From Methylomonas subterranea (lineage in GTDB: Bacteria > Pseudomonadota > Gammaproteobacteria > Methylococcales > Methylomonadaceae), in the NCBI RefSeq assembly GCF_024505185.1, contig NZ_JANIBJ010000007.1, positions 1-64,000 of the forward strand: a stretch of DNA of 64,000 nt, written 5' to 3'. The position numbers and the translations under genes were made by a program. Positions within the stretch are counted from its first letter, which is position 1, and each line of letters begins with the position of its first letter. The notes beneath the pieces were generated by a model. That model did not search any database. It had not been told where the DNA came from and saw nothing but the letters and a program-made list of their open reading frames with translations. Positions 33,676 to 62,537 of the stretch are shown here, piece after piece.

Positions 33676-33693
33676 GCGTCATCAAAATTTCAC
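33676..33693 (+). promoter_or_regulatory. PhoB box before the PhoA-type phosphatase gene
   Basis: Two 7-bp units, GCGTCAT and ATTTCAC, begin 11 bp apart (33676 and 33687), matching the CTGTCAT-N4-CTGTCAC layout of Pho boxes at 10 of 14 unit bases. A -10-like TTAATT is at 33703-33708, about 10 bp downstream, where PhoB boxes replace the -35. This is the weakest unit match of the set, but position and target agree. Confidence 0.55.
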
Positions 33694-33742
33694 ATTCAGG
33701 CATTAATTTAGCGCTTCCTAATTTCGCTCTCAGGGGGCAGCA

Positions 33743-35350
33743 ATGACACATCGAAAAACGCCAAAAACGACAGCCTTGGCCGTGGCCATGGGCGTATTCG
33801 GCTTAAGCTTGTCGGTGGGCGTGGTCGCGCACGGCGACAAGGCTAAAAAGCCCGCGAATCAAGCGTCCGACCAGGTTCCGTCGTCCGCCGCGGAATGGTT
33901 CAAGGCCGGCCAAAACGCCGTATTGGTGAATAAAAAAGACCTGCAGGAACTGCGCAAGGCCAAAAACGTGATTCTGTTCGTCGGCGACGGCATGGGCGTA
34001 TCCACCGTGACCGCGACCCGCATACTGGAAGGCCAAATGGCTGGTCGCGATGGCGAATTCAACCGCTTGTCATTCGAACGTTTCAGCCACATGGCCCACT
34101 CGGTTACCGCCAGCGCCAACCAACAAACCTCCGATTCGGCACCGACCGCCACCGCCATGGTGGCCGGCATCAAAACCAACGACGGCGCCATCTCGGTCGA
34201 TCAAAGCATCAACCGTTTGGAGCCGAGCGCGGCCGTCACGGCGGCCAAAAGCGTCAAAACCATACTGGAGCGGGCCGAAGAACGCGGCCTGTCCACCGGC
34301 GTAGTGAGCACCGCCCGCTTTACCCACGCCACCCCGGCCGTGAATTACGCCCATATTTCCAACCGCGACTGGGAAGCCGACAGCAATCTGCCCGCCGGCG
34401 CCACCGTCAAGGACATCGCCCGCCAATTGCTGGAATTTCCATATGGCGACGGCTTGGAAGTCGCGTTGGGCGGCGGTCGTAGCTATTTCATGCCCAACAG
34501 CCTGAACGACCCTGAATATCCCAGCCAAAAAGGCCGCCGGGCCGACGGCCGCGACCTGACCCTGGAATGGATCTCGCAATACAACAACTCGGAATACGTT
34601 TGGAATCAGGCACAGTTTGACGCCGTCAACCCTAAGAAAACCGATCATTTGCTGGGTTTGTTCGAACGCTCGCACATGCGTTACGAAGCCGACCGTAAGG
34701 ACGACGCCGCCGGCGAACCGTCATTGGCCGAGATGACCGATAAGGCCATCAAAATTCTGCAAAAAAACAAAAAAGGTTACTACCTGATGGTTGAAGCCGG
34801 CCGCATCGACCACGCCCACCATGCCGGCAATGCCTACCGGGCCTTGACCGACACCATCGCCTTGTCGGATGCCGTGAAAAAAGCCAGGGAACTGACCAAT
34901 GACAAGGATACCTTGATTCTGGTTACCGCCGATCATAGCCATGTGTTCACCATCGCCGGCTACCCGTCGCGCGGTAACCCGATTTTGGGCAAAACCGCGG
35001 TTGACGGCGTTGAGCTGAAGGATTCCTTGGGCTTGCCTTACACCACCTTGTCCTACGCCAACGGCCCCGGTTGGACCGGCGGCATGCAGCGCAAGGAATT
35101 CAATCCGGCCAATGAAGGTACGGTTGCCGCTGCCTATGACGGTGGCAAATTGCGTCCCGATCTGGCTAGCGTCGACACCGAAAATCCCAACTATCTGCAG
35201 GAAGCGACCGTGCCGATGGGCTCGGAAACCCACGCCGGTGAAGACGTGGCAATTTATGCCGATGGCCCCGGCGCCTATCTGGTGCGCGGTACGTTGGAGC
35301 AAAACGCGATTTATCACGTGATGGCCGACGCGCTGGGCATGCGCAAGTAA
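33743..35350 (+). CDS. phoA: Alkaline phosphatase, PhoA family
   Basis: An exported phosphomonoesterase. The 535 residues have a long basic signal (residues 1-30, cut near VVAHG), the metal aspartate D82 in LFVGDGMG, and the nucleophile S132 in the D-S-A-P-T-A-T-A-M motif. Further metal ligands lie in MVEAGRIDHAHHAGNA, TADHSHVF and SETHAGEDV. GGGGGC lies before the ATG at 33743. A candidate Pho box is 50 bp upstream and a strong terminator follows. It heads the cluster of phosphate-acquisition genes. Confidence 0.93.
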   Translation: MTHRKTPKTTALAVAMGVFGLSLSVGVVAHGDKAKKPANQASDQVPSSAAEWFKAGQNAVLVNKKDLQELRKAKNVILFVGDGMGVSTVTATRILEGQMAGRDGEFNRLSFERFSHMAHSVTASANQQTSDSAPTATAMVAGIKTNDGAISVDQSINRLEPSAAVTAAKSVKTILERAEERGLSTGVVSTARFTHATPAVNYAHISNRDWEADSNLPAGATVKDIARQLLEFPYGDGLEVALGGGRSYFMPNSLNDPEYPSQKGRRADGRDLTLEWISQYNNSEYVWNQAQFDAVNPKKTDHLLGLFERSHMRYEADRKDDAAGEPSLAEMTDKAIKILQKNKKGYYLMVEAGRIDHAHHAGNAYRALTDTIALSDAVKKARELTNDKDTLILVTADHSHVFTIAGYPSRGNPILGKTAVDGVELKDSLGLPYTTLSYANGPGWTGGMQRKEFNPANEGTVAAAYDGGKLRPDLASVDTENPNYLQEATVPMGSETHAGEDVAIYADGPGAYLVRGTLEQNAIYHVMADALGMRK

Positions 35351-35387
35351 ACGTTTCGGTTCTCGCGCGGGAACCTTAACAAAGCGG

Positions 35388-35420
35388 AACCGGGGGACGC
35401 CTGTGTCCCCCGGTTTTTTG
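35388..35420 (+). terminator. Terminator after phoA
   Basis: An 11-bp GC-rich stem (AACCGGGGGAC at 35388-35398 with its complement at 35405-35415), a 6-base loop and a T-run, 37 bp after the phoA stop. Confidence 0.9.
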
Positions 35421-35422
35421 TT

Positions 35423-35497
35423 GTAGGCCGGAATAAGCGTAGCGTTTCCGGCAGGTTGGTGCGTTTTTCCGGAAACGCTGCGCTTATTCCGGCCTAC
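35423..35497. repeat. REP pair (two inverted GTAGGCCGGAATAAGCG units)
   Basis: Left unit 35423-35451 (GTAGGCCGGAATAAGCG... TTTCCGG), inverted right unit 35468-35497 ending GGCCTAC, spaced by about 15 bases. The same unit occurs at 58402-58478, 58578-58656 and 59244-59277, around a REP-associated transposase gene. Confidence 0.88.
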
Positions 35498-37322: not shown

Positions 37323-37362
37323 GTGACCGGACGGTGACGGAAAAATTATCGTTTTGTGACGT
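37323..37362 (-). promoter_or_regulatory. PhoB box before the PEP-CTERM gene at 37207
   Basis: On the minus strand, units CCGTCAC and CGGTCAC are 11 bp apart, and a third GTCAC lies a further 22 bp upstream. The plus-strand GTGAC cores start at 37323, 37334 and 37356. A TATAAA-like -10 lies at about 37306-37312, about 10 bp downstream. Close match to the CTGTCAC consensus. Confidence 0.78.
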
Positions 37363-39764: not shown

Positions 39765-42287
<2,523 letters not shown>

Positions 42288-42358
42288 ATTCCGATCTCCG
42301 AAATGTGGCGGTAAACGAGGCAAGCGCTGCCGTACCGGCCATATTTCAAAGCAGTCAT

Positions 42359-42387
42359 GTGACAAAGCCATGAGGATTTGTTGACGA
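42359..42387 (-). promoter_or_regulatory. PhoB box before the nuclease gene
   Basis: Minus-strand units at exact 11-bp steps. Plus-strand cores are GTGAC at 42359, ATGAG at 42370 and TTGAC at 42381. An AT-rich -10 candidate lies at about 42340-42347. Confidence 0.72.
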
Positions 42388-42413: not shown

Positions 42414-42453
42414 TTGTCATTTTTCGGTCTTAAACCTGTCACGGATTTTTCAT
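42414..42453 (+). promoter_or_regulatory. Four-unit PhoB box before the first PhoX gene
   Basis: Units TTGTCAT (42414), CGGTCTT (42425), CTGTCAC (42436) and TTTTCAT (42447) at exact 11-bp steps. A TAATTT -10 is at 42464-42469, 10 bp downstream. One of the clearest operators in the window. Confidence 0.85.
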
Positions 42454-42506: not shown

Positions 42507-44570
42507 ATGAACGATAACGAGCATAACCTGATCGACTCCGGCGACGAGCCGATGAGCAATCATTCCGACAACCCGCATTTTTCCAGCATTCTGGAAAAGC
42601 GTTTGTCCCGCCGCGACATGTTGAGCGGCAGCTTGACCGCCGCCGTGGCCGGCATGTTCGGCGCTTCCAGCCTGGGCAATGTCGCGGCGGCGGCCGGCAG
42701 CTTTTTACCGCCGGCGGCCGGCGCTAATCCGTCTTTCGCCTTGAACCCAAGCCTGGGTTTTGCGGCGGTTCCGCCCACCCGTTCCGATAACGCTACCGTA
42801 CCGGCCGGCTATAAAGCACAAACCCTGGCGCCTTGGGGTACCCCATTGACCGGCAGCTATCCCGCTTATAAAGCCGACGGCAGCAACAGCGGCGCCGAGC
42901 AGGAGCAGCAAGTGGGTTCGCATCATGACGGCATGCATTATTTCCCGATGGCCAGCAATCCGAACGGCCACGGCTTGTTGTGCGTGAATCACGAGTACGT
43001 CGATCAATACAACCTGCATCAAGGCGGCGCCATCAACAGCAATCCGCGCCCGGAAGACCAAGTCCGTAAGGAAATCGCCGCCCACGGCGTCAGCGTCATC
43101 GAAGTCAAGAAAGACCCATTCACTGGCGAATGGGGCGTCGTGCAGGGTGGTTACAATCGCCGCATCACCGCCAACACACCGATGGAAATCCGTGGTCCGG
43201 TGCGCGGCAGCGATTTCGTCAAAACCAAATACAGCCCCGACGGCACCATGACCCGCGGCACCATCAACAACTGCGGTCACGGTTATACACCTTGGGGCAC
43301 TTACCTGACCTGCGAGGAAAACTGGTCGGGTTATTTCGTCAATCGCACAGGTCGTCCGCGCGAGCACGCCCGTTACGGTGTCAGCACCAGCGCCGGCCGT
43401 TACCGCTGGGAAACCGCGCAGGGCGGCGCCGATCAATACATCCGCTTCGACGCCTCGGTTAAAGCGGCCGATCCTGTCGACGACTACCGCAACGAGCCCA
43501 ACGGCCAAGGCTGGATCGTCGAGATCGATCCGTTCAACCCCAACAGCACGCCGAAAAAACGCACCGCGATGGGACGTTTCGGGCACGAAGGTTGCTGGTT
43601 ATCGCCGCCGCAATTGGGTCAACCGGTCGTTTTTTACTCCGGCGACGATGCGCAAAACGAATATGTCTATAAATTCGTCACCAAGGCCCGTTACAGCAAA
43701 AACGTCAATGGCGACATCCTGGATCAAGGCACTTTGTACGTGGCGCGCTTCAACGACGACGGCACCGGCGAATGGCTGGCATTGGACATCAACGACTTGG
43801 CGTTCCAGGCCGCCGCGTTTGCCAAGGGCGTGGCTTTTGCCGATCAGGCCGACGTATTGGTCAACACCCGTCTGGCGGCCGACGTGGTCGGCGCCACCAA
43901 AATGGACAGACCGGAGTGGGGCACGGTGCATCCGCAAACCCGCGAAGTCTATATGACCATGACCAACAACGGCAGCCGCAACGCCGGCAATATCGACGCC
44001 GCCAATCCGCGCGGCCCAAATCCTTACGGCCATATCATCCGCTGGCGCGAGCAGGGCAACCGTTCCTGGGCCACCAAATTCGAGTGGGACATCTTCGTGT
44101 TGGGCGGTATCGAATCCGACAGCCAAGTGTTGCCGGAACAAGGCGGCCCCGCGCTGACCCAAGACAACATCTTCGCCAGCCCGGACGGTTTGTGGCTGGA
44201 CCAAAACGGCATCCTGTGGATTCAGACCGATATGAGCGGCTCTCAGCAATTGTCCGGCCCCTTCGGCGCCAACCAAATGCTGGCCGCCAACCCGATCAGC
44301 GGCGAAATCAAGCGCTTTTTGGTCGGTCCCAACGATCAGGAAACCACCGGTGTGGTGTCGACCCCGGACGGCAAAAACCTGTTCGTCAACTTCCAGCATC
44401 CTGGCGACCGCTCCAGCGCCAGCCTGGGCTTCACCAGCAACTGGCCTGACCACGGCGCGGTGTATCGTCAACCCGGCGATGCGGTTGTGGTAGCCGACCC
44501 GGTGGGTCCGCGTCCACGCAGTTCCACCATCGTCATCACCCGCGAAGACGGTGGCGTGGTCGGCTTGTAA
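42507..44570 (+). CDS. phoX: PhoX-family phosphatase (DUF839), Tat-exported
   Basis: A calcium- and iron-dependent alkaline phosphatase family. The 687 residues begin with a 30-residue leader and a twin-arginine signal (SRRDML at 34-39) with a hydrophobic alanine-rich stretch. The beta-propeller carries the family signatures HDGMHYFPM, LLCVNHEYV, GTINNCGHGYTPWGTYLTCE (the cysteine and glutamate of the metal site) and RFGHEGC. AGAGAGAA precedes the ATG. Its Tat signal fits the nearby tatABC genes. Strong Pho box upstream, strong terminator downstream. Confidence 0.93.
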   Translation: MNDNEHNLIDSGDEPMSNHSDNPHFSSILEKRLSRRDMLSGSLTAAVAGMFGASSLGNVAAAAGSFLPPAAGANPSFALNPSLGFAAVPPTRSDNATVPAGYKAQTLAPWGTPLTGSYPAYKADGSNSGAEQEQQVGSHHDGMHYFPMASNPNGHGLLCVNHEYVDQYNLHQGGAINSNPRPEDQVRKEIAAHGVSVIEVKKDPFTGEWGVVQGGYNRRITANTPMEIRGPVRGSDFVKTKYSPDGTMTRGTINNCGHGYTPWGTYLTCEENWSGYFVNRTGRPREHARYGVSTSAGRYRWETAQGGADQYIRFDASVKAADPVDDYRNEPNGQGWIVEIDPFNPNSTPKKRTAMGRFGHEGCWLSPPQLGQPVVFYSGDDAQNEYVYKFVTKARYSKNVNGDILDQGTLYVARFNDDGTGEWLALDINDLAFQAAAFAKGVAFADQADVLVNTRLAADVVGATKMDRPEWGTVHPQTREVYMTMTNNGSRNAGNIDAANPRGPNPYGHIIRWREQGNRSWATKFEWDIFVLGGIESDSQVLPEQGGPALTQDNIFASPDGLWLDQNGILWIQTDMSGSQQLSGPFGANQMLAANPISGEIKRFLVGPNDQETTGVVSTPDGKNLFVNFQHPGDRSSASLGFTSNWPDHGAVYRQPGDAVVVADPVGPRPRSSTIVITREDGGVVGL

Positions 44571-45125: not shown

Positions 45126-45782
45126 TCAGGCGGCTTCGCGGCGGCGTAGGCCCGCCAAACCGGCCAGAGCCGAGCTGAACAACCAAATGGCGGACGGAAC
45201 CGGCACTTGCGAAACGTCGCCGTTGAATACCGCAATCGCATAACCGTTGCCGGTTTTCAGGGCGTCGGTTTGCAGGCCTAAATCGGTCAGGAAGGACCAG
45301 GCGAAATTGGCCGGGTCGGGGGCGTATTCGGTAGCTGTCCAATACAGGTCGGCTTGCAAGTTGGACAGCGGGCCCTTGTTGGTCAACTTGCCGTCGATAT
45401 AGTCGCCGTTGCTGGCGTATGCGCCGCTGTTATTCAGCGTGACGTAATACAAATGAGCCAGTTCGGACGCCGGGCTGGAAATGTTGTAGCTCCAGTCGGT
45501 GCCGCCGTCCACGCTCTCGGCGTATTGAAACGATGAACCGTTGACCGGAGAAACGGTCGGCAAGCGCCAGCCGCTGATGCCGGCATGAGACAGGCCGGCT
45601 ACCCAGTCCAGCGCCTCTTGCCAGGATTGAACGGCTTGGCTTTGGTTCAGCCAGGTGACGTTCAAAACGGTGTCGTAGTACATGTCGTTGCCGCGCGCTT
45701 CCAGGGCCGCTTCGGAACTTGCGGTGAACAACATACCGGCGGATAAAGCCGAAGCGAGCAGTAAGGGTTTGCCTGAAATCAT
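45126..45782 (-). CDS. PEP-CTERM protein with DUF1566-type domain
   Basis: A 218-residue protein: signal peptide (cut near TASSEA), a DUF1566/Lcl-like domain (YYDTVLNVTWLNQ, then WVAGLSHAGISGWRLPT), and the tail VPVPSAIW, hydrophobic helix, RRREAA. DUF1566 domains are lectin-like surface modules of unclear function. The ATG at 45782 is followed by the signal peptide and preceded by AAGGAGT, a good ribosome binding site. A Pho box lies 70 bp upstream, suggesting phosphate control. Confidence 0.87.
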   Translation of the reverse strand: MISGKPLLLASALSAGMLFTASSEAALEARGNDMYYDTVLNVTWLNQSQAVQSWQEALDWVAGLSHAGISGWRLPTVSPVNGSSFQYAESVDGGTDWSYNISSPASELAHLYYVTLNNSGAYASNGDYIDGKLTNKGPLSNLQADLYWTATEYAPDPANFAWSFLTDLGLQTDALKTGNGYAIAVFNGDVSQVPVPSAIWLFSSALAGLAGLRRREAA

Positions 45783-45851: not shown

Positions 45852-45891
45852 GTGACGGAGTCGTTACCTGTATATAAAGGTTTGATGACAG
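45852..45891 (-). promoter_or_regulatory. PhoB box before the DUF1566 PEP-CTERM gene
   Basis: Plus-strand cores GTGAC at 45852, GTTAC at 45863 and ATGAC at 45885 (11 then 22 bp apart), so on the minus strand the outermost unit reads CTGTCAT. A TTAATG -10 candidate lies at about 45836-45841. Confidence 0.72.
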
Positions 45892-48966: not shown

Positions 48967-49006
48967 GTGACACGATTGTGAAATTGATGTTAGCGGTTTA
49001 TGACAT
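48967..49006 (-). promoter_or_regulatory. Four-unit PhoB box before the second PhoX gene
   Basis: Plus-strand cores GTGAC 48967, GTGAA 48978, GTTAG 48989 and ATGAC 49000, at perfect 11-bp steps. A TATGCT-like -10 lies about 10 bp downstream on the minus strand, near 48950-48956. Confidence 0.85.
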
Positions 49007-50542: not shown

Positions 50543-50547
50543 GGCGC

Positions 50548-50757
50548 TCAGGAGCTATGTTCGGCGTTTTCGGCAAGCGGTTTTTTCAGCGCGCCGGTTT
50601 GAGCCGCGTGCTCGTCCAGCGCGGGCTCGTTCATGGCCTGTTTAAAGCTGCGTATCGCGCCGCCCAGGTCGCCGCCCATGCCGCGCAGTTTTTTGGTGCC
50701 GAAAATGATGATGACCATGGTTAAAATCAATAGCAGTTCCGTGACGCCTAAGTTCAT
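50548..50757 (-). CDS. tatA: Sec-independent translocase protein TatA
   Basis: A 69-residue pore-forming subunit: MNLGVTELLLILTMVIIIFG helix, the F-G-T-K-K-L-R hinge, amphipathic helix and a short acidic tail. First gene of tatABC. Upstream (50770-50795), GTGAT and GTTAA cores sit 22 bp apart on the reverse strand, too weak to call a Pho box. Confidence 0.94.
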   Translation of the reverse strand: MNLGVTELLLILTMVIIIFGTKKLRGMGGDLGGAIRSFKQAMNEPALDEHAAQTGALKKPLAENAEHSS

Positions 50758-50894: not shown

Positions 50895-51100
50895 CCTCCG
50901 TAGCGGGATGGATAATGATGCCGCGCGCCGAATAGATACTGTTTTTGTTGCCAAGCCCGGCTCGAGCGATTTTTTACAAAAGCCTCGCGGCGGAGCGGGA
51001 GATTGCCACCCGGATATGCTAGCCGGGGTTTATGACAATACGGTGAAGAAAGTTAAAAGCAGGAGCAGTGGAGGCGTTACGAATCGCCAGACGAGAAATG

Positions 51101-53737: not shown

Positions 53738-53755
53738 GTGACAAAACGGTTAAAC
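53738..53755 (-). promoter_or_regulatory. PhoB box before the choice-of-anchor I gene
   Basis: On the minus strand GTTTAAC and TTGTCAC are 11 bp apart (plus-strand cores GTGAC 53738, GTTAA 53749). It lies back to back with the T2SS box at 53805. Confidence 0.62.
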
Positions 53756-53793: not shown

Positions 53794-53822
53794 CTTGACG
53801 GGGTTTGTCATACGCCTGTCAC
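53794..53822 (+). promoter_or_regulatory. PhoB box before the type II secretion operon
   Basis: TTGTCAT at 53805 and CTGTCAC at 53816, exactly 11 bp apart, with a weaker CTTGACG at 53794. A TTAATA/TAATAT -10 is at 53832-53838, about 10 bp downstream. A near-consensus Pho box, placing the gsp operon under phosphate control. Confidence 0.87.
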
Positions 53823-53894: not shown

Positions 53895-54326
53895 ATGAAC
53901 AAAAAAATACAGCAAGGTTTTACTCTGATCGAAGTAATGATCGTGGTGGTGATATTGGGGATACTGGCGTCCATCGTGGTGCCGAAAATCATGGGCAGGC
54001 CGGACGAAGCCCGCGCCACCCGCAGCATGCAGGACATCCGCGCCATCGGCGCGGCGCTGGATTTGTACCGGCTGGATAATTTCAGCTACCCCAGTACCGA
54101 GCAGGGCCTGGAGGCTTTGGTGACCAAGCCGGCGGGACTGGCGCCCGGCGCGCATTGGAAGCAGGGCGGCTATCTGGACCAACTGCCGACCGATGCCTGG
54201 GGCAAGCCCTACATGTATCTGAAGCCGGGCCTGCACGGCGAATACGATTTGTATTCCTTCGGCGCCGACGGCGTGGAAGGCGGCGAAGAGGCCAATGCCG
54301 ATATTGCCAACTGGAAGCTTAAATAA
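53895..54326 (+). CDS. gspG: Type II secretion major pseudopilin GspG
   Basis: Builds the T2SS pseudopilus. The 143 residues begin MNKKIQQGFTLIEVMIVVV with the prepilin peptidase site G-F and the glutamate at +5. The calcium-loop C-terminus GADGVEGGEEANADIANW is intact. The start at 53895 fits the short leader; the earlier frame would add a non-pilin N-terminus. First gene of gspGHIJKLM, 73 bp after a Pho box. Confidence 0.95.
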   Translation: MNKKIQQGFTLIEVMIVVVILGILASIVVPKIMGRPDEARATRSMQDIRAIGAALDLYRLDNFSYPSTEQGLEALVTKPAGLAPGAHWKQGGYLDQLPTDAWGKPYMYLKPGLHGEYDLYSFGADGVEGGEEANADIANWKLK

Positions 54327-54334
54327 ACCGGGCC

Positions 54335-54841
54335 ATGCGCGCCGGCGGCTTTACGCTGATCGAATTATTGATCGTGCTGGTGTTGATCGGCGTCATGACG
54401 GGCATGGCCATGCTGGCTATCGGCAACGACGGCAAGGACAGGCGGCCGCTGCTGGAGGCGGAGCGCCTGCAAACCCTGCTGGACCTGGCGGAACAGGAAA
54501 GCCAGTTGCGCGGCCAAGCCATGGCGCTGGAACTGTTTGCCCACGGCTACCGCTTTCTGATCCTGACCGAATCCGGCTGGTTGGAAGAAACCGGCGACGC
54601 GGTGTTTCGGGCCCGCGAACTGGACGGCGATTTACGCCTGGGCCTGCGGATAAACGACAACAAGCAAGTGCTGGCCGCCCGGCCGGGCTTGGGGGCAAAG
54701 CCCCGGCCGGGCATATTGCTGATCCCGGATGCTCAAGCCGACAGCATACGCATAGACATCGGCGATTCTCACGGCAGCCTGCAGATCGGCAATGGCGGGG
54801 AGCGCGGTTGGGAAATCGCCGCCGCCGGAGTTATCCCATGA
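54335..54841 (+). CDS. gspH: Minor pseudopilin GspH
   Basis: A 168-residue pseudopilin with the leader MRAGGFTLIELLIVLVLIGV (cleavage after G), then a long helix and a beta domain. The ATG is 8 bp after gspG; the stop overlaps gspI by ATGA. It caps the pseudopilus with the other minor subunits. Confidence 0.9.
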   Translation: MRAGGFTLIELLIVLVLIGVMTGMAMLAIGNDGKDRRPLLEAERLQTLLDLAEQESQLRGQAMALELFAHGYRFLILTESGWLEETGDAVFRARELDGDLRLGLRINDNKQVLAARPGLGAKPRPGILLIPDAQADSIRIDIGDSHGSLQIGNGGERGWEIAAAGVIP

Positions 54842-55236
54842 CCGGGCTCCACGCTGAGCCCGAATCTTCCCGCCGGCGCCAAGCTGGTTTCACCTTGCTG
54901 GAAGTGTTGATCGCATTGGCGATACTGGCCATCCTGATGAGCGCCCTGATCAAAATCGCCGCCAACAATATCCGCAATCTGGGTTTTCTGGAAAACGCCA
55001 CCCTGGCCGAACAGGTGGCGCACAACCGTCTGCTGCAACTGCGTCTGACGGAGGAAAGGCCGGAGACCGCCGAGGGTTGGGAAGACATGGCCGGCCGGCG
55101 CTGGTTTTGGCGCATTTCGCGCTCGGTCGGCCATGGCATGGGAAGAGGGGTTTTGCGCTATCGGGTACAGGTGTTTGCCGACGGCGAAAAAACGCCTTAT
55201 GTCGAGCTGATCGGCTATGTGCCGGAGCCGTCGTGA
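54838..55236 (+). CDS. gspI: Minor pseudopilin GspI
   Basis: A 132-residue pseudopilin. The basic leader of about 17 residues precedes GFTLLEVLIALAILAILM. The C-terminus has the W-R-I and V-x-V-F-A-D strands of the family. It starts in the ATGA overlap with gspH and ends in a GTGA overlap with gspJ. Confidence 0.9.
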   Translation: MTGLHAEPESSRRRQAGFTLLEVLIALAILAILMSALIKIAANNIRNLGFLENATLAEQVAHNRLLQLRLTEERPETAEGWEDMAGRRWFWRISRSVGHGMGRGVLRYRVQVFADGEKTPYVELIGYVPEPS

Positions 55237-55814
55237 ACGGAGGCCGGGTTCGGGCCCGAGGCTTTACCTTGCTGGAGTTGCTGATTGCCATGGCGATTTT
55301 CGCCATCATGGCCGGCATGGCCTACGGCGGCTTGAAAGCCGTCCTCGATGCCGGCCGGGCCACGCGGGGCAGGGCGGAACAAATGCAACAACTGCGGCAG
55401 GCCCTGTATTTATTGAACGAAGATTTGCAGCAGGCCGTGCCGCGCGCGGTGCGCGACGAGCTCGGCGACCTGGAGGACGAGTTTCGCGGCGGCATGGGCC
55501 GGGAATTGTTGACACTGACCCGCGCCACGCCGGAATTGTTGCCGAACAATACCGCAAGCGGCCTGCTACGCGTCAGTTACCGTTTCGAATCCGGCGTCTT
55601 GTACCGGCTGGTTTGGCATACCCTGGACAGGACGCAGCAAAGCCGGCCCTTGCGAAAACGCATCATGGAGGCCGAGGCCTTGCAAATCCGCTTTTTCGGC
55701 GCCGATTGGAGCACAAGCTGGCCGGTGGCCGGCGCCGGCTTGCCCAGGGCGGTGGAAGTGACGCTGAATGTGCCGGGCCTGGGCCGGATTCGGCGCGGAT
55801 TTTGGTTGCGATGA
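55233..55814 (+). CDS. gspJ: Minor pseudopilin GspJ
   Basis: A 193-residue pseudopilin starting at GTG 55233, which overlaps the gspI stop. Leader MNGGRVRARGFTLLELLIAM, then the DLQQAVPRAVRD segment and LLTLTRATP typical of GspJ. The upstream open frame to 55077 lies in gspI and is not used. Confidence 0.9.
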   Translation: MNGGRVRARGFTLLELLIAMAIFAIMAGMAYGGLKAVLDAGRATRGRAEQMQQLRQALYLLNEDLQQAVPRAVRDELGDLEDEFRGGMGRELLTLTRATPELLPNNTASGLLRVSYRFESGVLYRLVWHTLDRTQQSRPLRKRIMEAEALQIRFFGADWSTSWPVAGAGLPRAVEVTLNVPGLGRIRRGFWLR

Positions 55815-56728
55815 GCGCGGGACGGCGGATGCGGCGGCAACGCGGAGTGGCCTTGATTACTGTGTTGCTGGTGCTGGCCTTGGCCACCGTGACCATAGTG
55901 TCCATGTCCGGCGAACGGCAACTGGATATTCGGCGCACCGAAAACCAGCTGCGCGGCGATCAGGCCTGGGCCCATGCCCACAGCCTGGAGAGCTGGGCCT
56001 TGGCGCGCCTGCGGGACGAGGCCGGCGACCGGCAAAAGCCGCTACGCCTGCGGGAAGACGGCGGCGCCGAATTGCGGGCAAGTCTGGCCGAAGCGCAGGG
56101 CAAAATCAATTTGAACAATCTATTGGTGGACGGCGAAGTCAGTCAGACCGATGCGCAGCGCCTGAGGCGGCTGTTGCGGCACTTGGAACTGAACGGCGAA
56201 TTGCTGGATGCCATCCTGGACTGGATCGATGCCGACGGCGATATTCGTTATCCGTTCGGAGCGGAAGACGAAGCCTATTCCCGCCGCCAGCCGCCGGGCA
56301 GAGCCGCCAACCGCGAGTTTGCGGATCTCGGCGAATTGCGTCTGATACAGGGCGTGACGCCGGAAGTTTTTCGCAAGCTGCGGCCTTTCGTCAGCGTCCT
56401 GCCGGGTTATGCGCCCATCAACGTCAACACCGCCGCTCCCGAAGTGCTGCGTTGTCTGGCGGACGACATCAGCGCCGACCGAGCGGCTTCCATGTTTCGG
56501 GCCAGCGGCAAACCCTTCGCCGATCTGGATGAGTTTTTAAAGGACGAGGCGGTGCTGGGCAGCGGCATCGGTAGATACGGTTTGAGCGTGCAGAGCAAAT
56601 ACTTTTTATTGGCGGGATCGGTGGATATGGGCGGGACGCGTTTGCGTTTCGAATCGCTGTTGCGCAAGGACGGCGACGGCGCCGTGGCAGTGGTCGGCCG
56701 CGCGCGCGAAGGGTGGCAATATGACTGA
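55811..56728 (+). CDS. gspK: Minor pseudopilin GspK
   Basis: A 305-residue, large minor pseudopilin. Leader MSAGRRMRRQRGVALITVLL: the residue at +5 is not glutamate, as is normal for GspK. The alpha domain and helix-hairpin-helix-like stretch APINVNTAAPEVLRCL are typical. It starts in an ATGA overlap with gspJ and overlaps gspL by 8 bp. Confidence 0.92.
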   Translation: MSAGRRMRRQRGVALITVLLVLALATVTIVSMSGERQLDIRRTENQLRGDQAWAHAHSLESWALARLRDEAGDRQKPLRLREDGGAELRASLAEAQGKINLNNLLVDGEVSQTDAQRLRRLLRHLELNGELLDAILDWIDADGDIRYPFGAEDEAYSRRQPPGRAANREFADLGELRLIQGVTPEVFRKLRPFVSVLPGYAPINVNTAAPEVLRCLADDISADRAASMFRASGKPFADLDEFLKDEAVLGSGIGRYGLSVQSKYFLLAGSVDMGGTRLRFESLLRKDGDGAVAVVGRAREGWQYD

Positions 56729-57914
56729 GCCGATATTGCTGCGGGAATTGTCCGGCCCGCAACAAGCGCAATGGCTGGATTTGGCGGCGCCGGCCGACGG
56801 CGTGCATGTCGGCGGTCTGCGCGAACTGGCCGGTCTGGCGCGGGAGCGGCCGCTGATCCTGGTTTGGCCGGCGGCCTCGATATTGTTGCTGCAACTGGAT
56901 CTGCCGCTACGCGGCGCCGGGCAAATCGCCAAGGCTCTGCCGTATGCGCTGGAAGATTCGCTGGCGCTGGACGTCGAGGCTTACCATTTCAGTTGGTGCC
57001 GGGCCGCGCGCGACGGAGCCATAGCCGTGGCCGCCGTCGACCGGCAAGCGATGACGGCCTGCATGGCGCGCTTCGCGGCGGCCGGCTTGCGCTTGAGCAT
57101 GGCCTTGCCGGAACCCTTGTTGTTGCCGTGGCATGCGGGCGAATGCGCCATGTTGCTGGAAGGCGGCAGCGGCGTGTGCAGATTCGGCGCATGGCTGGGC
57201 GGCGGCGGCGAGGCGGATTTGTGCGGCGTGTTGCTGGAAAAACTCCATGCGGACGGACAACTGCGAGGCAGTTTGCAACTGTGGTCCGCGCCCGGAGGCG
57301 CGGATTTCGGCCCGCTGCCGGTCGAAGTCCAGGCGCGGGAATGGCGGGAGCCGCTGGCGCTGTATGCCGAGCAATGGCGGGCGGCGACCGGCTTGAATCT
57401 GCTGGTCGGCGCATACGCTCCGCCAAGCCGGCGTTCCGGCAGCCTGAAGGCATGGTTGCCGGCGGCCTTGATTTTACTGGCCGCCTTGCTGGCGCAACTG
57501 GCCGGGCAGTGGAACTTGCAGCGGCTGCAACAACAGCAATTGCAAGCTTTGGAGGCCGACAGCGAGGCCTTGTTCCGGCAAACCTTTCCGGAAGTCAAGC
57601 GCTTGGTCAATATTAAGGCGCAAGCGGATCAGCAGTTGCAGGCCTTGCATGAGCAATCCCGGCACAACGCGGGCGGCTTTTTGGCCTTGTTGCATGTCGC
57701 GGGCGGGCCATTGATGGAAGCCCCGCAAATCAGGTTGCAAGGCCTGCAATTCGACGGCGAGGTGTTGCGTATCAAACTGCTGGCGCCGGACGCGGCCGGC
57801 CTGGAACAATTTAAAGATAGGCTAAGCGGCGAGGGCGGCACGCAGGCTGATATCGTGGCGGCGACCGGCGTTGCCGAAGGCGTGGAGGCGGAAATTGCCA
57901 TTCGACAAAACTGA
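56721..57914 (+). CDS. gspL: Type II secretion protein GspL
   Basis: An inner-membrane assembly factor that recruits the ATPase GspE. The 397 residues form an actin-like cytoplasmic domain (1-235, with GAGQIAKALPYALEDSLALD), one membrane segment (about 240-258) and a periplasmic ferredoxin-like domain. It overlaps gspK by 8 bp and gspM by 20 bp. No gspE is in the window. Confidence 0.9.
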   Translation: MTEPILLRELSGPQQAQWLDLAAPADGVHVGGLRELAGLARERPLILVWPAASILLLQLDLPLRGAGQIAKALPYALEDSLALDVEAYHFSWCRAARDGAIAVAAVDRQAMTACMARFAAAGLRLSMALPEPLLLPWHAGECAMLLEGGSGVCRFGAWLGGGGEADLCGVLLEKLHADGQLRGSLQLWSAPGGADFGPLPVEVQAREWREPLALYAEQWRAATGLNLLVGAYAPPSRRSGSLKAWLPAALILLAALLAQLAGQWNLQRLQQQQLQALEADSEALFRQTFPEVKRLVNIKAQADQQLQALHEQSRHNAGGFLALLHVAGGPLMEAPQIRLQGLQFDGEVLRIKLLAPDAAGLEQFKDRLSGEGGTQADIVAATGVAEGVEAEIAIRQN

Positions 57915-58413
57915 TGTGATCCGGCGTTGGCGGGCCTTGTCGGCGCGCGAACAAATGTTGGCGGTCGCTGGTATGGCGGTGGTCGCTTTGGCGGCGGTCT
58001 ACGGCGGGCTGTACGAACCGATGCGGGAGGAAAACCGGCGCCTGCGGCAACAACTGCAAGTCCGCCAACAAGTTCGCCAGCATTTGCGGGAGGTGGCGCA
58101 ACGGGCGGCGCAACTGCGCGGGTCGGGCGAATACAGCGCTGTTTCGCCCATGGAGCCGGCGGCGGCCATTGCCGGCAGCAGCCGGCAGTTGGATCTGGAA
58201 AGCTATATCGGCAAGCGGCAAGCGGCTGCGGAGGAGGGGATAGAACTCGAGCTGCAAGCCATTCCCTTCGACAAGCTGGTCTATTGGCTGGCGGTCATGC
58301 GGCAACAGCATGGCGTGGTGGTCGCCAAGCTGGACATGCGGCGGCACGCGGCCGACAGCCCCTTGCTGGACGGCACGCTGACCTTGGGCGGCATAAACCG
58401 TGGGCCGGAATAA
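57895..58413 (+). CDS. gspM: Type II secretion protein GspM
   Basis: A partner of GspL. The 172 residues have a membrane segment (about 21-40, LAVAGMAVVALAAVYGG), a coiled coil (about 45-75) and a periplasmic domain. The start is placed at TTG 57895 because GGAGG at 57884-57888 is six bases upstream. The last codons (G-P-E-stop) are read inside a REP unit, so the C-terminus was probably altered by the repeat. No gspN follows. Confidence 0.85.
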   Translation: MPFDKTDVIRRWRALSAREQMLAVAGMAVVALAAVYGGLYEPMREENRRLRQQLQVRQQVRQHLREVAQRAAQLRGSGEYSAVSPMEPAAAIAGSSRQLDLESYIGKRQAAAEEGIELELQAIPFDKLVYWLAVMRQQHGVVVAKLDMRRHAADSPLLDGTLTLGGINRGPE

Positions 58414-59277: not shown

Positions 59278-59718
59278 AAGTCTCCTTTGTATCACCAATG
59301 TAATACGTTTAACCGAATTGTCATGGACGTGTAACTGAAACCGCGCATTTGCTTTGAAACAATATGTCCAAGGCTCGGGGGAGCGTATGCGCAACCTCCG
59401 GCCAACGGATAGGGAAAACGTGGGAACAGGGACGGCACGCAGAGGGAGCGGCAAGGGAGCGGGTTAGGGAGTTGGAAAACAGGGGGTTCAAAAAATGGTA
59501 GCGGGGAAACGCCACTCTTTGAGTGTTAGATAGTAAAGCGTGTAAAAGCCAAACCCGTCGCGAGGCGGGGACGGAAAATCACGGGTCTTGATGTTAGTCG
59601 TACTCCCGCCGGGAGTAGCCGCGTAAGGGCTTGCCGCCCGCAAGGGCGGCAATGACAAGGAAGCCAAGACGGCCGGATCGTCACCTTGTGTACAACCAAT
59701 TTAAACATGAGGAAATCT

Positions 59719-60519
59719 ATGAAAATTTTAGCTAAATCGGTTGCCGTCGCGGCAATCGCCATGTCCATGACCGGCGTTGCCGAGGCCCGTATTCAGGCTA
59801 TCGGCGATGCAACAGCTGACGGTAGCGAGTTGTTGTTCAACTTGGTCAACTATACCGCCCAAAACAGCTACACGCTGGATCTGGGTATCACGATTGCCCA
59901 ATTCCGCACCAGCAGCGATCAGACTCTGGATTCATGGTCCGCCTTGTTGAATGCGGACAGCAATTTTCAAGCATTCCTGGCGACTTACGATGCCAGCCAC
60001 AACGTAACCTGGGGTGTTTCCGGCGGTCATCAGCTGTTGAATGAACTGAGCGATTTACCGATCTTCGGTTTCTACACCACCTCGGTAAGCGCCGCGCCGG
60101 CGGTAATCGACGTTAATGCCGCCGATATTAACAACACACAAGGCGTGTGGAGTACGCTGGTTGCGGACATTCAAACCCAGGACAGCAACGCCAACAACCT
60201 GAGCACCTTTAGAAGCGTCGGCGAGCAAGGTTATACCGCTGTTTACGGCAACGACTTCCTGACCGCGCTGCCATTCCAGGCCCAGGGCAATGTCGGCGAA
60301 GCGCTGGCTTTTCTGCAGGAAAGAGTCAATGCCGATGATTTCGATACCGGCGAATTGACGGTTTTCGGCGGCAAATGGTTGTTCGACATCAACAACGGCG
60401 TCGCGGTACTGAAATACGACGTATCGGCGGTATCTGAAGTACCGGTGCCGGCCGCCGCGTGGATGTTCGGTAGCGCTCTTTTGGGCCTGCTGGGTCTGAA
60501 CCGTCGTAAAGCCGCTTAA
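59719..60519 (+). CDS. PEP-CTERM (VPVPA-type) exported protein
   Basis: A 266-residue protein: signal peptide (MKILAKSVAVAAIAMSMTGV... cut near AEA), a beta-rich domain with repeated N-F-V-x-Y and T-L-D-x-G patterns, and the tail VPVPAAAWMFGSALLG, then NRRKAA. The ATG at 59719 follows GAGGA with proper spacing; upstream ATGs lack this. A possible weak Pho-like pair lies far upstream (59318) but is not counted. Function unknown. Confidence 0.88.
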   Translation: MKILAKSVAVAAIAMSMTGVAEARIQAIGDATADGSELLFNLVNYTAQNSYTLDLGITIAQFRTSSDQTLDSWSALLNADSNFQAFLATYDASHNVTWGVSGGHQLLNELSDLPIFGFYTTSVSAAPAVIDVNAADINNTQGVWSTLVADIQTQDSNANNLSTFRSVGEQGYTAVYGNDFLTALPFQAQGNVGEALAFLQERVNADDFDTGELTVFGGKWLFDINNGVAVLKYDVSAVSEVPVPAAAWMFGSALLGLLGLNRRKAA

Positions 60520-60520
60520 G

Positions 60521-60630: not shown

Positions 60631-60718
60631 CAGGCAAACGGCCGGCGCGTCAGGGATGACGGCTTTGCCACGGCGGCGGGCCGGCCAAGGTATGTTTTTA
60701 ATTTCCATGGTAATCAAT

Positions 60719-62287
60719 ATGAAAAAGCACGTATTATCGGCCGCCGTTGCGCTGGCTTCTTTGGCGGGATTCTCGCAAGGCGCTCTGGCGCACGCACCGG
60801 GCGTGACGCCCGATCTGGAAATCTTCATGTCCGGAGCCACCGCGCCGGATAAAGGCCTGAAAGCCCTGTTCACAAGCATGTGCACACCCGGCACGCTGGA
60901 TATCTACCGCGACGATCCGGGCGCGGCTTCCACCAAGGGCAGAAACCACAACGCCTTCTTTTGCACCGTATCCGCCTCTGAAATCCCCAACCTGACGGTA
61001 AACGGTTCGGCGGTAACCAGCGCGAAAATTCTGTTTCACAAACGTTCGCAAGGCGGCTCGGCGCAGGGCGTCAACCCCTTGATCGACGGCGTGGCGATTG
61101 CGCACATGCGCATAGACAACGGCAACTGCACCAACGTGGGCTCGGGCAACTGGGATTGTAACGCGGCCGGTGCCAACCTGGTGAACGTGGTGTCCGATGC
61201 CGGCGTATCCGACGTGGAACCCAAATTGTTCGTCGGCCCCAACAAACCTTCCAATGCCTCGGCGGTTAATCCAGCCCAGGCCGATGCGGTGCTGACCGTG
61301 GTGCCGGCGGCCTCCCTGATTTTCGGCGTGCCGGTTACCGACAACCTGTATATCGCCCTGCAAAAAGCCCAGGGCTTGCTGGATGCGCCCAGCAGCTGCA
61401 GCGCCGGCGCTTATACCGAGGCCTGCATGCCCAGCCTGAGCAAGGAGCAGGTGGCTACCCTGGTATCCGGTCAAATCAAGCGCTGGAACGAGTTCAGCGT
61501 CAACGGCACTGCCCTGACCACCCTGACCGCCGGCATGACCTATACCGACGACACCGTCAACCCGCCGGTGGTGCGCAACGTCACTCCGTCCGATACCAAG
61601 CTGCATTTTTGCAAGCGTATCGACGGTTCCGGTACCGGCGCGCAAATGTACGCCAAATTCCTCAACAACCCCTGCAGCACGGCCGGTCTGGATCCTGATT
61701 GGGGCGGAAGCGCGCTGGCTGGTCCGGTCAAGCACGAGGTATCCGGTTCCGGCGACATGGAATTGTGTCTGACCGACTTTGCCCGCGGCACCAACACGGC
61801 TAAAAAAGTCACCAGCACCAACCCAGACGTGTTCACCACCGATGTCAATCCCAGTTTAGCCACCGGCTGGGCCATCGGCATGCAAAGCCTGGAAAACAAT
61901 GCCACCCATACCAGACCTTACCGTTTCGTCAAGGTCGACGGCGTGGCGCCAACCCTGGAAAACGTCTTCAAGGGCAGATACATGGACTGGGTGGAATATA
62001 CCTTCCAATACCGTAAAGCCATCAGCCAGGACAAGAAAACCGTGATCGCCCAAATCGCCAAGGATGCCGGCGCGCCCAGCATCATTGCCACCGAGTTGAA
62101 TTCCGGTTTTGTGCATCCGTTCGGCCCATCGGGCTATCTGGCTAACGGCAATAACTTCAGCTACAGCCATACCTTGAATCTGAATGCGCCGGTCAACCCC
62201 TACTCGCACGAAGTCAAGGGTTCCTTGAGCAACTGCCAGGTACCGGTTATCAAATCGGTCGTCAACAACAACAAGCCTATCAATTAA
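60719..62287 (+). CDS. Exported substrate-binding-like protein (PstS-like)
   Basis: A 522-residue protein with a signal peptide (MKKHVLSAAVALASLAGFSQ, cut near GALA). The start of the mature protein, DLEIFMSGATAPDKGLKAL, resembles the S-G-x-T-A-P opening of PstS-type binding proteins. The C-terminal third has IIATELNSGFVHPFGPSGYL. It is longer than PstS (about 350) and cysteine-containing (C-x-C pairs spread through the sequence), so it is a distant relative at best. An in-frame ATG at 60707 is an alternative start. It may bind phosphate or an ester. Confidence 0.6.
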   Translation: MKKHVLSAAVALASLAGFSQGALAHAPGVTPDLEIFMSGATAPDKGLKALFTSMCTPGTLDIYRDDPGAASTKGRNHNAFFCTVSASEIPNLTVNGSAVTSAKILFHKRSQGGSAQGVNPLIDGVAIAHMRIDNGNCTNVGSGNWDCNAAGANLVNVVSDAGVSDVEPKLFVGPNKPSNASAVNPAQADAVLTVVPAASLIFGVPVTDNLYIALQKAQGLLDAPSSCSAGAYTEACMPSLSKEQVATLVSGQIKRWNEFSVNGTALTTLTAGMTYTDDTVNPPVVRNVTPSDTKLHFCKRIDGSGTGAQMYAKFLNNPCSTAGLDPDWGGSALAGPVKHEVSGSGDMELCLTDFARGTNTAKKVTSTNPDVFTTDVNPSLATGWAIGMQSLENNATHTRPYRFVKVDGVAPTLENVFKGRYMDWVEYTFQYRKAISQDKKTVIAQIAKDAGAPSIIATELNSGFVHPFGPSGYLANGNNFSYSHTLNLNAPVNPYSHEVKGSLSNCQVPVIKSVVNNNKPIN

Positions 62288-62340
62288 GGCTCGATAGGGA
62301 CGGACGGGCGGCAGGGACGCCGCACAGGGATGTAGTTTAA

Positions 62341-62372
62341 TCGGCCGGCCGCGGGTTTCTGCGGTCGGCCGG
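62341..62372 (+). terminator. GC-rich hairpin after the binding-protein gene
   Basis: An imperfect 11-bp inverted repeat CGGCCGGCCGC / GCGGTCGGCCG with an 8-base loop, about 55 bp after the stop. No T-run, so the termination role is uncertain. Confidence 0.4.
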
Positions 62373-62519
62373 AGTCACGAGGCCCGGCCAGTCAATCTTG
62401 CCGGGTCTTGCTTGACTTAAGTTGCCGGCAGGCAGCGACGATGATTTGTCAAGACATTTTTACAACACTTTTACGGGTATGTCTGACATACCTTTTTTTG
62501 TTTAGGCCGACTCGCCGAC

Positions 62520-62537
62520 TTGTCACAAAACCTTAAA
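62520..62537 (+). promoter_or_regulatory. PhoB box before the two-partner-secretion gene
   Basis: TTGTCAC at 62520 and CCTTAAA at 62531, 11 bp apart, with a TAGAAT -10 at 62548-62553, about 10 bp downstream. The second unit is weak. Confidence 0.55.

What the first reader, a model, noticed from the sequence alone, without database searches (positions are those of the whole stretch)
33676..62537. A phosphate-starvation secretome island with nine PhoB-like operators
Nine promoter regions contain 7-bp CTGTCAT/CTGTCAC-like units at exact 11-bp (or 22-bp) steps. They precede phoA, two phoX genes, the dockerin nuclease, the T2SS operon, three PEP-CTERM genes and a TpsB transporter. The box-to-(-10) spacing is about 10 bp at seven of the nine, as in known PhoB promoters. 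Gene content (phosphatases, nuclease, Tat, T2SS, PEP-CTERM proteins) agrees. A coordinated export and surface-display system for phosphate scavenging is the best explanation.
Basis: partly seen in the sequence, partly recalled or inferred. Interest (0 to 1): 0.85.

Follow-up and report, generated by a model that had tools for sequence, protein, structure and literature searches.

The report
Phosphate-starvation secretion island with c-di-GMP riboswitches
A methane-eating bacterium groups enzymes and export machines for scavenging phosphate behind phosphate-starvation switches, and its big surface-protein genes there also carry RNA sensors for the "settle down" signal c-di-GMP, a pairing not found in the papers searched.

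Summary
In a probable methanotroph (two pmoA/amoA-type genes), E. coli-like Pho-box repeats at 11-bp steps, followed 10 bp later by a -10, are enriched before the island's genes: 7 of the 9 named promoters rank in the top 9 of 190. phoX1 and gspG are very strong; PEP45 is weak (27/190); the PEP59 site lies ~385 bp upstream without a good -10. Outside the island the same signal marks pstS, a phosphate-selective porin and a separate gspCDEF operon, so the T2SS is split over two Pho-boxed loci. The gspG and gspC sites are kept in 14/14 and 12/12 relatives. The core continues past the window: gspG-M, a PEP-CTERM protein, a PstS-like protein, tpsB-tpsA, exbB, tonB, porin, like the P. aeruginosa hxc-pdt-tonB4 locus. 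New here: c-di-GMP-I riboswitches in the PEP59 leader and the tpsB-tpsA gap, recurring in relatives. Best reading: a PhoB-regulated secretion locus whose surface proteins are also gated by c-di-GMP. Not shown: PhoB binding, induction, riboswitch direction.

The parts
33676..33693 (+). Pho-box-like site before phoA, 10 bp then TAATTT
   Evidence: composite 9.3, rank 9/190; weak by repeats alone (rank 58/190)
33743..35350 (+). phoA alkaline phosphatase
   Evidence: PF00245 440.6 bits
36476..37207 (-). PEP36: exosortase-type (VPLPA-CTERM-like) secreted protein; start chosen by eye at the signal peptide
   Evidence: TIGR03370 E 3.5e-5, 23.7 bits, below its cut-off of 25.35; sequence
37323..37362 (-). 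Pho-box-like site before PEP36, 10 bp then TATAAA
   Evidence: rank 3/190
39765..42371 (-). extracellular endonuclease (LTD-like, Exo_endo_phos, dockerin-like C-terminus)
   Evidence: PF03372 1.4e-8; PF00932 and PF00404 below cut-off
42359..42387 (-). Pho-box-like site before the nuclease; it overlaps the longest-frame start, so the true start is probably downstream
   Evidence: rank 7/190; -10 is TGAAAT
42414..42453 (+). four-unit Pho box before phoX1, 10 bp then TAATTT
   Evidence: rank 1/190; four-unit score 29.8, the highest of the window
42507..44570 (+). phoX1, Tat-type signal (SRRDML, read by eye)
   Evidence: PF05787 526.5 bits; sequence
45126..45779 (-). PEP45: exosortase-type secreted protein; start chosen by eye
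   Evidence: TIGR03370 E 2.2e-4, below cut-off; C-terminus
45852..45891 (-). four-unit Pho-box-like site before PEP45, 10 bp then TAATGT
   Evidence: four-unit rank 2/190; composite rank only 27/190
46800..48923 (-). phoX2, divergent PhoX with Tat-type signal (DRRTVLRG, read by eye)
   Evidence: PF05787 75.5 bits; no full-length match in the 60 relatives searched
48967..49006 (-). four-unit Pho-box-like site before phoX2, 10 bp then TATGCT
   Evidence: rank 3/190
49456..50757 (-). tat operon: tatC, a TatA/B-family gene (50222-50542) and a tatA-like gene starting at 50757
   Evidence: TatC PF00902 226 bits; TatA_B_E for 50225-50542; the gene at 50757 read by eye
51032..51049 (-).
   Evidence: score 16.9; outside the 250-bp region ranked; no such site beside tat in G026
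52032..53642 (-). choice-of-anchor I protein with VPVPGAVWLFGS-type C-terminus
   Evidence: PF22494 295.9 bits; C-terminus
53738..53755 (-).
   Evidence: rank 2/190; 3 of 3 relatives
53805..53822 (+). Pho box before gspG, 10 bp then TAATAT
   Evidence: one of only three exact matches in 4.41 Mb; rank 1/190; 14 of 14 relatives
53895..58413 (+). T2SS operon part gspG-H-I-J-K-L-M
   Evidence: PF08334, PF12019, PF02501, PF11612, PF03934/PF21687, PF05134/PF12693, PF04612
59307..59335 (+). Pho-box-like site at the head of the PEP59 leader; no good -10 at 10 bp
   Evidence: three-unit score 15.4; aligned counterpart in relatives; composite over threshold in 2 of 10 relatives
59535..59685 (+). c-di-GMP-I riboswitch aptamer in the PEP59 leader, with an insertion of about 70 nt in P3 (extent inferred)
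   Evidence: Rfam RF01051 42.0 bits, gathering score 35, at 59538-59610; leader alignment; 3' half placed
59719..60519 (+). PEP59: PEP-CTERM-type secreted protein (VPVPAAAWMFGSALLGLLGLNRRK)
   Evidence: weak NF033554 match, below cut-off; C-terminus
60719..62287 (+). PstS-like (PBP superfamily) secreted protein
   Evidence: PF12849 E 0.0045 in own, below cut-off; best 2.7e-7 among 5 members, 2 of 5 matching
62520..62537 (+). Pho-box-like site before tpsB, 10 bp then TAGAAT
   Evidence: rank 3/190; relatives 4 of 12 over threshold, median 13.2
62609..64000 (+). tpsB (ShlB/FhaC-type transporter). It runs past the window end; then a c-di-GMP-I riboswitch (C7:64313-64391), tpsA (C7:64436-75082), exbB, tonB and a porin
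17884..19512 (+). exosortase (EpsH), a candidate processing enzyme of the PEP-CTERM-type proteins
   Evidence: TIGR02602 171.4 bits; PF09721 262.6 bits

Best explanation
This is a PhoB-regulated phosphate-scavenging secretion locus of a methanotroph. Under phosphate starvation PhoB binds 11-bp direct repeats that stand in for the -35 region, 10 bp upstream of the -10. It turns on two groups of genes: (a) secreted phosphatases and a nuclease, with Tat for the PhoX proteins, and (b) a type II secretion system split over two loci, followed by a PEP-CTERM-type protein, a PstS-like protein, a two-partner-secretion giant protein and a TonB/ExbB/porin module. The leader of the PEP-CTERM gene and the tpsB-tpsA gap each hold a c-di-GMP-I riboswitch. 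The surface-display part is therefore made as a joint function of low phosphate and c-di-GMP, most simply 'starved and sessile'. Shown here: genes, repeats, conservation, aptamers. Inferred: PhoB binding, induction, ligand response, the ON direction of the riboswitches, and the routes of individual substrates.
For: Composite sites rank in the top 9 of 190 at 7 of 9 named promoters and at 8 of all 16 island promoters tested. Unit spacing of 11 bp and gap of 10 bp stand out against other spacings. In 4.41 Mb only three exact matches to YTGTCAYN4YTGTCAY exist: before gspG, pstS and a phosphate-selective porin. gspCDEF has a one-mismatch site. PhoB (330 bits) and PhoR are present. Sites over the 99th background percentile: gspG 14/14, gspC 12/12, choice-of-anchor gene 3/3 relatives; the reversed-sequence control gave 0, and six internal gene sets (gspD, E, F, K, L, PstS-like) gave 0. 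Riboswitches: RF01051 over its gathering score at 59538 and C7:64313; 10 hits (nine RF01051, one RF03167) in 6 of the 7 relative stretches given; aptamer motif between tpsB and tpsA in 12 of 13 genomes; on 12 aptamers 97.2% of helix cells paired and 11 of 21 pairs with two-sided changes.
Against: No expression or binding data. The matrix rests on recalled E. coli boxes. phoA and PEP45 are weak; PEP59 lacks a good -10; PEP46, the metallophosphatase, the gene at 35456, the PstS-like gene and the gene at 51101 have no good site. The 33 kb left of the island hold three composite sites >=14 beside no known Pho gene that I identified. The phoX1 site is absent in relative G026 (-3.3), just under threshold in G007 (13.1), and over it in 3 of the 7 homologues tested. 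tpsB is over threshold in 4 of 12 and PEP59 in 2 of 10 relatives. The phosphatase block is not beside the T2SS in the relatives' stretches. The predicted anti-SD pairing in the tpsA leader reached <=0.05 of shuffles in only 5 of 12 species and failed in the window's own (0.766).
Confidence: 0.78

Rival explanations
1. The boxes are bound by another OmpR/PhoB-family regulator, with T2SS and TPS expression tied to another signal; only the phosphatases are truly in the Pho regulon.
For: The genome has many PhoB-like proteins or domains (97 matches to the PhoB model, one over its cut-off).
Against: The same composite site marks pstS and a phosphate-selective porin, and the 18-base gspC site differs from the pstS site at two positions.
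Confidence: 0.1
2. Only the strong sites (phoX1, gspG, gspC, choice-of-anchor gene, perhaps phoX2, PEP36, tpsB) are operators; the phoA, nuclease, PEP45 and PEP59 sites are chance, so the 'nine-operator island' is overstated.
For: Ranks 9, 7, 27 and 166 of 190; phoA repeats alone rank 58/190; the phoX1 site is not kept in G026.
Against: The exact 10-bp spacing to a -10 at phoA and PEP45, and the aligned PEP59 leader site in ten species.
Confidence: 0.3
3. The riboswitch-bearing part (PEP59, tpsA) is basically a c-di-GMP surface-adhesion module, and the nearby Pho boxes matter little for it.
For: Five of the eight c-di-GMP-I aptamers found in the genome precede PEP-CTERM-type genes, and the best two-unit scores upstream of the six aptamers elsewhere are only -0.1 to 9.3. 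PEP59 and tpsB sites are weaker than those of gspG.
Against: Box-like sites recur before PEP59 and tpsB in relatives; P. aeruginosa pdtA, in a similar locus, is PhoB-dependent (PMC7035377, passages read).
Confidence: 0.2

Closest known systems
Pseudomonas aeruginosa hxc-lapA-pdtA-phdA-pdtB-exbB2-exbD2-tonB4-PA0696 locus
   Same: A phosphate-starvation T2SS, an alkaline phosphatase, a two-partner secretion pair, ExbB, TonB and a putative porin in one locus (PMC7035377, passages read; families here)
   Different: Here Pho-box-like sites precede the genes themselves; PEP-CTERM-type and PstS-like proteins are added; T2SS C-F lies on another contig; c-di-GMP riboswitches are present. A sigma factor like VreI was not sought. 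Sequence identity to the P. aeruginosa proteins was not measured. A TpsB search in 20 genomes reached through my loci (17 Pseudomonas/Stutzerimonas, 3 others) found only distant matches (7 of 20, best E 2.4e-11, 22% identity).
Caulobacter crescentus phosphate-starvation lipoprotein ElpS and its adjacent T2SS
   Same: Phosphate starvation linked to a T2SS and a surface or released protein (PMC2996285, abstract and passages read)
   Different: Caulobacter has a complete 12-gene T2SS beside elpS; ElpS is a lipoprotein; no TPS or riboswitch is mentioned in the passages read.
Pseudomonas fluorescens Pho-RapA-c-di-GMP-LapD-LapG-LapA circuit
   Same: Phosphate and c-di-GMP together control a giant surface protein (PMC3032545, abstract and passages read)
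   Different: There Pho lowers c-di-GMP through RapA and LapA is cleaved off; here the joint is in the gene's own leader RNA, and the direction may be opposite.
c-di-GMP riboswitches before PEP-CTERM genes in Methylophaga nitratireducenticrescens GP59
   Same: Four of seven c-di-GMP riboswitches precede PEP-CTERM or VPLPA-CTERM genes (PMC12530212, passages read); here 5 of 8
   Different: No Pho box or secretion locus is described in the passages read.

Membership tests
PhoB regulon (Pho-box promoters) | 7-bp units in 11-bp register placed 10 bp before a -10, enriched over other promoters | tested here: met
   7 of 9 named and 8 of 16 island promoters in the top 9 of 190; spacing controls
PhoB regulon (Pho-box promoters) | Same site at known Pho genes of the genome, with PhoB/PhoR present | tested here: met
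   pstS, phosphate-selective porin; PhoB, PhoR
PhoB regulon (Pho-box promoters) | PhoB-dependent induction and binding | not testable with these tools
   no expression or binding data at hand
Hxc-like phosphate-regulated T2SS locus | T2SS core set with Pho boxes | tested here: met
   G-M in the window, C-F on C10, both with sites kept in relatives
Hxc-like phosphate-regulated T2SS locus | Orthology of T2SS and TPS proteins to Hxc and Pdt | not tested
   no P. aeruginosa record was fetched; one search found only distant TpsB matches in other genomes
Hxc-like phosphate-regulated T2SS locus | Secretes an alkaline phosphatase | not testable with these tools
   phosphatases are neighbours; their route is unknown
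c-di-GMP-I riboswitch (RF01051) | Covariance-model score over the gathering threshold | tested here: met
   42.0 and 56.4 bits against 35
c-di-GMP-I riboswitch (RF01051) | P2 and P3 helices kept by compensatory change | tested here: met
   97.2% of cells paired, 11 of 21 pairs with two-sided changes; 0/500 shuffles as high for four measures, 53/500 for the fifth (further pair types); slid controls 33-50% paired. Twelve aptamers picked by hand; the own PEP59 aptamer was not among them.
c-di-GMP-I riboswitch (RF01051) | Ligand-dependent switch of ribosome-site access | tested here: inconclusive
   anti-SD pairing beyond shuffles in 5 of 12 species, not in the own one
PEP-CTERM/exosortase system | C-terminal sorting signal and an exosortase in the genome | tested here: met
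   C-termini (PEP46 is over the Pfam cut-off; PEP36, PEP45 and PEP59 match below cut-off); two exosortases, one in the window
Two-partner secretion | TpsB with POTRA/ShlB domains and a TpsA with TPS domain | tested here: met
   PF03865, PF08479; PF05860, PF12545 in a 3548-aa protein

The most novel reading that the evidence does not exclude
One promoter and one leader RNA integrate two global signals: a Pho-box promoter (phosphate starvation) and a c-di-GMP riboswitch (sessile state) act in series before the PEP-CTERM/PstS-like genes, and again around tpsB-tpsA. The cell would build a phosphate-scavenging surface layer only when starved and attached. This would be a conserved two-input gate for a kind of secretion locus so far known to me as phosphate- or sigma-factor-regulated only.
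Probability: 0.45. Interest if true: 0.7.

Novelty: new variant of a known kind. Interest (0 to 1): 0.57.

Why it matters
It extends phosphate-regulated secretion (Hxc/Pdt-like) to methanotrophs, links PEP-CTERM-type surface proteins and perhaps Tat to the Pho box, and shows a place where phosphate and c-di-GMP signalling may meet in a single leader RNA. Reporter fusions can test that directly. Searches of the held papers for 'pho box' with PEP-CTERM (0 papers), 'c-di-GMP riboswitch' with 'phosphate starvation' (1 paper, the P. fluorescens LapA/LapD work) and PEP-CTERM with phosphate starvation and PhoB (1 paper, in which the PEP-CTERM genes are targets of another regulator, passages) found no report of this combination. 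Subscription papers are mostly not held, and other wordings were not tried.

Tried and rejected
I followed the error's own advice and took stretches.

A plain consensus search with mismatches is too noisy to judge single sites. PWM scans on three or four units favour a 62446-62474 site before tpsB, but the -10 spacing and the alignment with relatives point to 62520-62537 instead.

A first footprint count for gspC used a region that ended too early and gave 0 of 12. The corrected region gave 12 of 12 (one of them, G016, exactly at the threshold of 13.3). In one search the start codon was mis-set for G028 and probably for G016; both rows stay in the count of 12.

Structure prediction of the PstS-like protein as a single sequence failed (mean pLDDT 31) and was not used. 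A profile search of solved structures gave nothing. Its filing as PstS-like rests on weak PF12849 matches and on reading the sequence.

TpsB was sought in 20 genomes reached through loci to find an Hxc/Pdt neighbour; only distant matches were found. Gene order around PhoX in the 80 best of 588 PhoX loci: at least one other island gene beside PhoX in only 5 of 80 (choice-of-anchor gene in 3, gspG in 2, gspK in 1, the 51101 gene in 1). One of them, an Azoarcus MAG (L032), has PhoX, the choice-of-anchor gene and gspG within 10 kb in the window's relative orientation; this was not followed further.

In one search the island genes had 400 bp upstream and the background 250 bp; one search used equal lengths and its ranks are the ones relied on. 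Island starts of PEP36, nuclease, PEP45, gspG and the 51101 gene were moved by eye to the signal-peptide or prepilin start, and PEP59, tatA and the PstS-like gene were also set by eye; background starts were not.

Full report
What was checked. The window is bases 1-64000 of contig C7 of a 4.41-Mb, 104-contig genome. The genome has two pmoA/amoA-type genes, and the nearest named PhoX homologues are from Methylomonas sp. BC.006 (82%, partial) and Methylicorpusculum (80%), so the organism is very probably a methanotroph near Methylomonas; the genus is inferred. The named genes are present.

The boxes. With a matrix from ten recalled E. coli boxes, three units at 11-bp steps scoring >=14 occur 7 times in the island (overlapping counts over phoX1, gspG, PEP59 and tpsB). 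The background rate is 0.43 per 29 kb in 17 sampled stretches; other spacings give 0-2. Adding a -10 exactly 10 bp downstream sharpens this. At score 14 the island has 7 sites at gap 10 and 1-3 at gaps 4-9 and 11-17, against 0.93 per 29 kb in the background at gap 10. Three further sites of that strength lie in the 33 kb left of the island (17440 +, 19796 +, 21311 -), which tempers the claim. Against 189 background promoters, island ranks are phoX1 1, gspG 1, choice-of-anchor gene 2, PEP36 3, phoX2 3, tpsB 3, nuclease 7, phoA 9, PEP45 27. The other seven of the 16 tested are gene 35456 at 175, metallophosphatase 60, PEP46 184, tatA 167, gene 51101 156, PEP59 166 and PstS-like 149, all out of 190. 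So 8 of 16 lie in the top 9 of 190 where about 0.8 would be expected (my arithmetic). The tatABC site (51032-51049 -, score 16.9) and the PEP59 site lie beyond the 250 bp ranked.

The genome's own Pho genes. Searching the whole genome for YTGTCAYN4YTGTCAY with up to two mismatches gives 165 matches against 120 for the pattern read backwards, so weak matches are mostly chance. Only three are exact: the gspG promoter, pstS on C12 and a phosphate-selective porin on C18. A one-mismatch site on C10 precedes gspC, D, E and F. Other one-mismatch places (13 in all) were not all traced to genes. pstS, porin and gspC score 24-30 in the composite model. The T2SS is therefore split, C-F on C10 and G-M here, and both parts carry Pho boxes. 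The only other GspE over its cut-off (C3) has no other homologue of these T2SS genes in the 20 kb fetched around it. PhoB (330 bits, over cut-off) and PhoR are adjacent on C15.

Conservation. GspL is found in 15 of 36 same-genus genomes and in none of 24 same-order genomes. In the stretches fetched for these 15 (some cut by contig ends), one search shows gspCDEF near gspG in 12, PEP59 homologues in 12 (two of them weak), tpsB in 12, the choice-of-anchor gene in 3 and tatC in 1. No phoA, nuclease, phoX, PEP36, PEP45 or PEP46 homologue was seen in them. G007 has neither gspCDEF nor the PEP59-tps part in its stretch, and G009 lacks PEP59 and tpsB. Sites over the 99th background percentile (13.3): gspG 14 of 14, gspC 12 of 12, choice-of-anchor gene 3 of 3, tpsB 4 of 12 (median 13.2), PEP59 2 of 10, exbB 2 of 11. 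gspD, E, F, K, L and the PstS-like gene give none, nor do tonB (4) and porin (1), and the reversed-sequence control gives none. In the alignment of 15 gspG upstream regions the box and -10 stand out of otherwise poorly conserved flanks. Against the reading: phoX1 occurs in only 3 of the 36 genus members, one of them in two pieces. In G007, which has both, it lies far from the T2SS on the same contig. Its site is missing in G026 and just under threshold in G007; of seven homologues tested, three are over it (Methylicorpusculum 18.2, Azoarcus 14.6, L033 14.5). phoX2 has only partial or very weak matches in the relatives. So in this genus the phosphatase block looks like a lineage-specific addition beside a more widely kept secretion core. 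One Azoarcus MAG (L032) does have PhoX, the choice-of-anchor gene and gspG together, so the linkage may recur elsewhere.

The riboswitches. The stretch between the PEP59 box and its start codon is strongly conserved in ten species, the own included. Rfam finds a c-di-GMP-I riboswitch there (59538-59610, 42.0 bits, gathering score 35). From the alignment I infer that the own copy, with those of G014, G026 and G015, has an insertion of about 70 nt in P3 and that its 3' half lies at 59665-59685. A second, stronger aptamer (56.4 bits) lies between tpsB and tpsA at C7:64313-64391, about 45 nt before tpsA. Of the 28 relative stretches fetched I gave Rfam seven, from 7 of the 15 relatives: ten aptamers pass (nine RF01051, one RF03167), in six of the seven; L170 has none. 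By motif an aptamer lies between tpsB and tpsA in 12 of 13 genomes; G015 is the miss. On 12 aptamers picked by hand (the own PEP59 and C21 ones and four near-identical relatives left out) 97.2% of helix cells pair and 11 of 21 pairs change on both sides; four of five measures beat all 500 shuffles, the fifth was reached by 53. The genome search lists eight aptamers, a lower bound, since 150 of 502 first-look candidates were scored. Five precede genes whose products end in a PEP-CTERM-type signal (PEP59, C14, C3, C29, C21); the other three precede tpsA, a large secreted protein (C24) and a GDSL-type protein (C32) (signals and GDSL read by eye). I place the 3' strand of the aptamer as a possible anti-SD, which would make c-di-GMP an ON signal. 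The duplex test supports this in 5 of 12 species and not in the own sequence, so the direction is open.

Mechanism. Low phosphate activates PhoR and PhoB (established knowledge). PhoB would bind the repeats with the last unit over the -35 region (inferred, by analogy with E. coli as I recall it). PhoX proteins with Tat-type signals go through Tat, whose operon may also have a site. The T2SS would export some of the phosphatases or the nuclease (unknown). PEP-CTERM-type proteins would be processed by one of two exosortases, one of them in this window. TpsB would export the 3548-aa TpsA. c-di-GMP would tune PEP59 and TpsA after transcription starts.

Comparison. The nearest known system is the P. 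aeruginosa hxc-lapA-pdtA-phdA-pdtB-exbB2-exbD2-tonB4-PA0696 locus, in which pdtA depends in vitro on the VreI/VreR cascade and PhoB (PMC7035377, passages read). The module list matches well, but protein orthology was not measured. Caulobacter couples phosphate starvation and a T2SS (PMC2996285, abstract and passages). P. fluorescens couples Pho to c-di-GMP through RapA (PMC3032545, abstract and passages). c-di-GMP riboswitches before PEP-CTERM genes are listed in Methylophaga (PMC12530212, passages). I found no paper that joins a Pho box, PEP-CTERM or TPS genes and a c-di-GMP riboswitch (searches; capped listings, and only listings unless said). Verdict: a new variant of a known kind.

Noticed in passing
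window 30111-31886 (-): A PAS-GGDEF diguanylate cyclase gene (PF00990) sits just left of the island; it could supply c-di-GMP to the riboswitches.
   Followed up: no
window 17884-21453 (+): Exosortase EpsH-DUF3485 fusion followed by a glycosyltransferase-4 gene, likely an exopolysaccharide/exosortase cluster.
   Followed up: partly
window 17440 (+), 19796 (+), 21311 (-): Three composite Pho-box-like sites scoring 14.7-16.1 lie left of the island, in or near the exosortase/glycosyltransferase genes; chance or real not decided.
   Followed up: no
window 27144-27522 (+) and 6752-6931 (-): tmRNA (205 bits) and 6S RNA (78 bits) by Rfam.
   Followed up: no
window 59347-59530: About 180 nt of the PEP59 leader upstream of the aptamer are also highly conserved in ten species and gave no Rfam match up to E 1 in that stretch; possibly a second RNA element.
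   Followed up: partly
window, several intergenic places (about 38700-38850, 49100-49350, 50800-50950, 60550-60600): Recurring CCCTCTCC...GGGAGAGGG / TTTTACGACA repeat-like elements between genes, seen in the sequences.
   Followed up: no
L010:11431-13230: The ExbB-like protein of the core carries DUF2341 and Laminin_G_3 domains in front of the MotA/TolQ/ExbB channel domain, which looks unusual; matched nearly full length in relatives.
   Followed up: no
L032 (Azoarcus MAG) 10001-18900: PhoX (70%), a choice-of-anchor I homologue (41%) and gspG (45%) lie together in the window's relative orientation.
   Followed up: no
G000 C21:26624-26705, C14:73279-73362, C3:15551-15625, C29:19414-19495: c-di-GMP-I aptamers before PEP-CTERM-type genes elsewhere in the genome; best upstream two-unit Pho scores 0.8-9.3.
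   Followed up: yes
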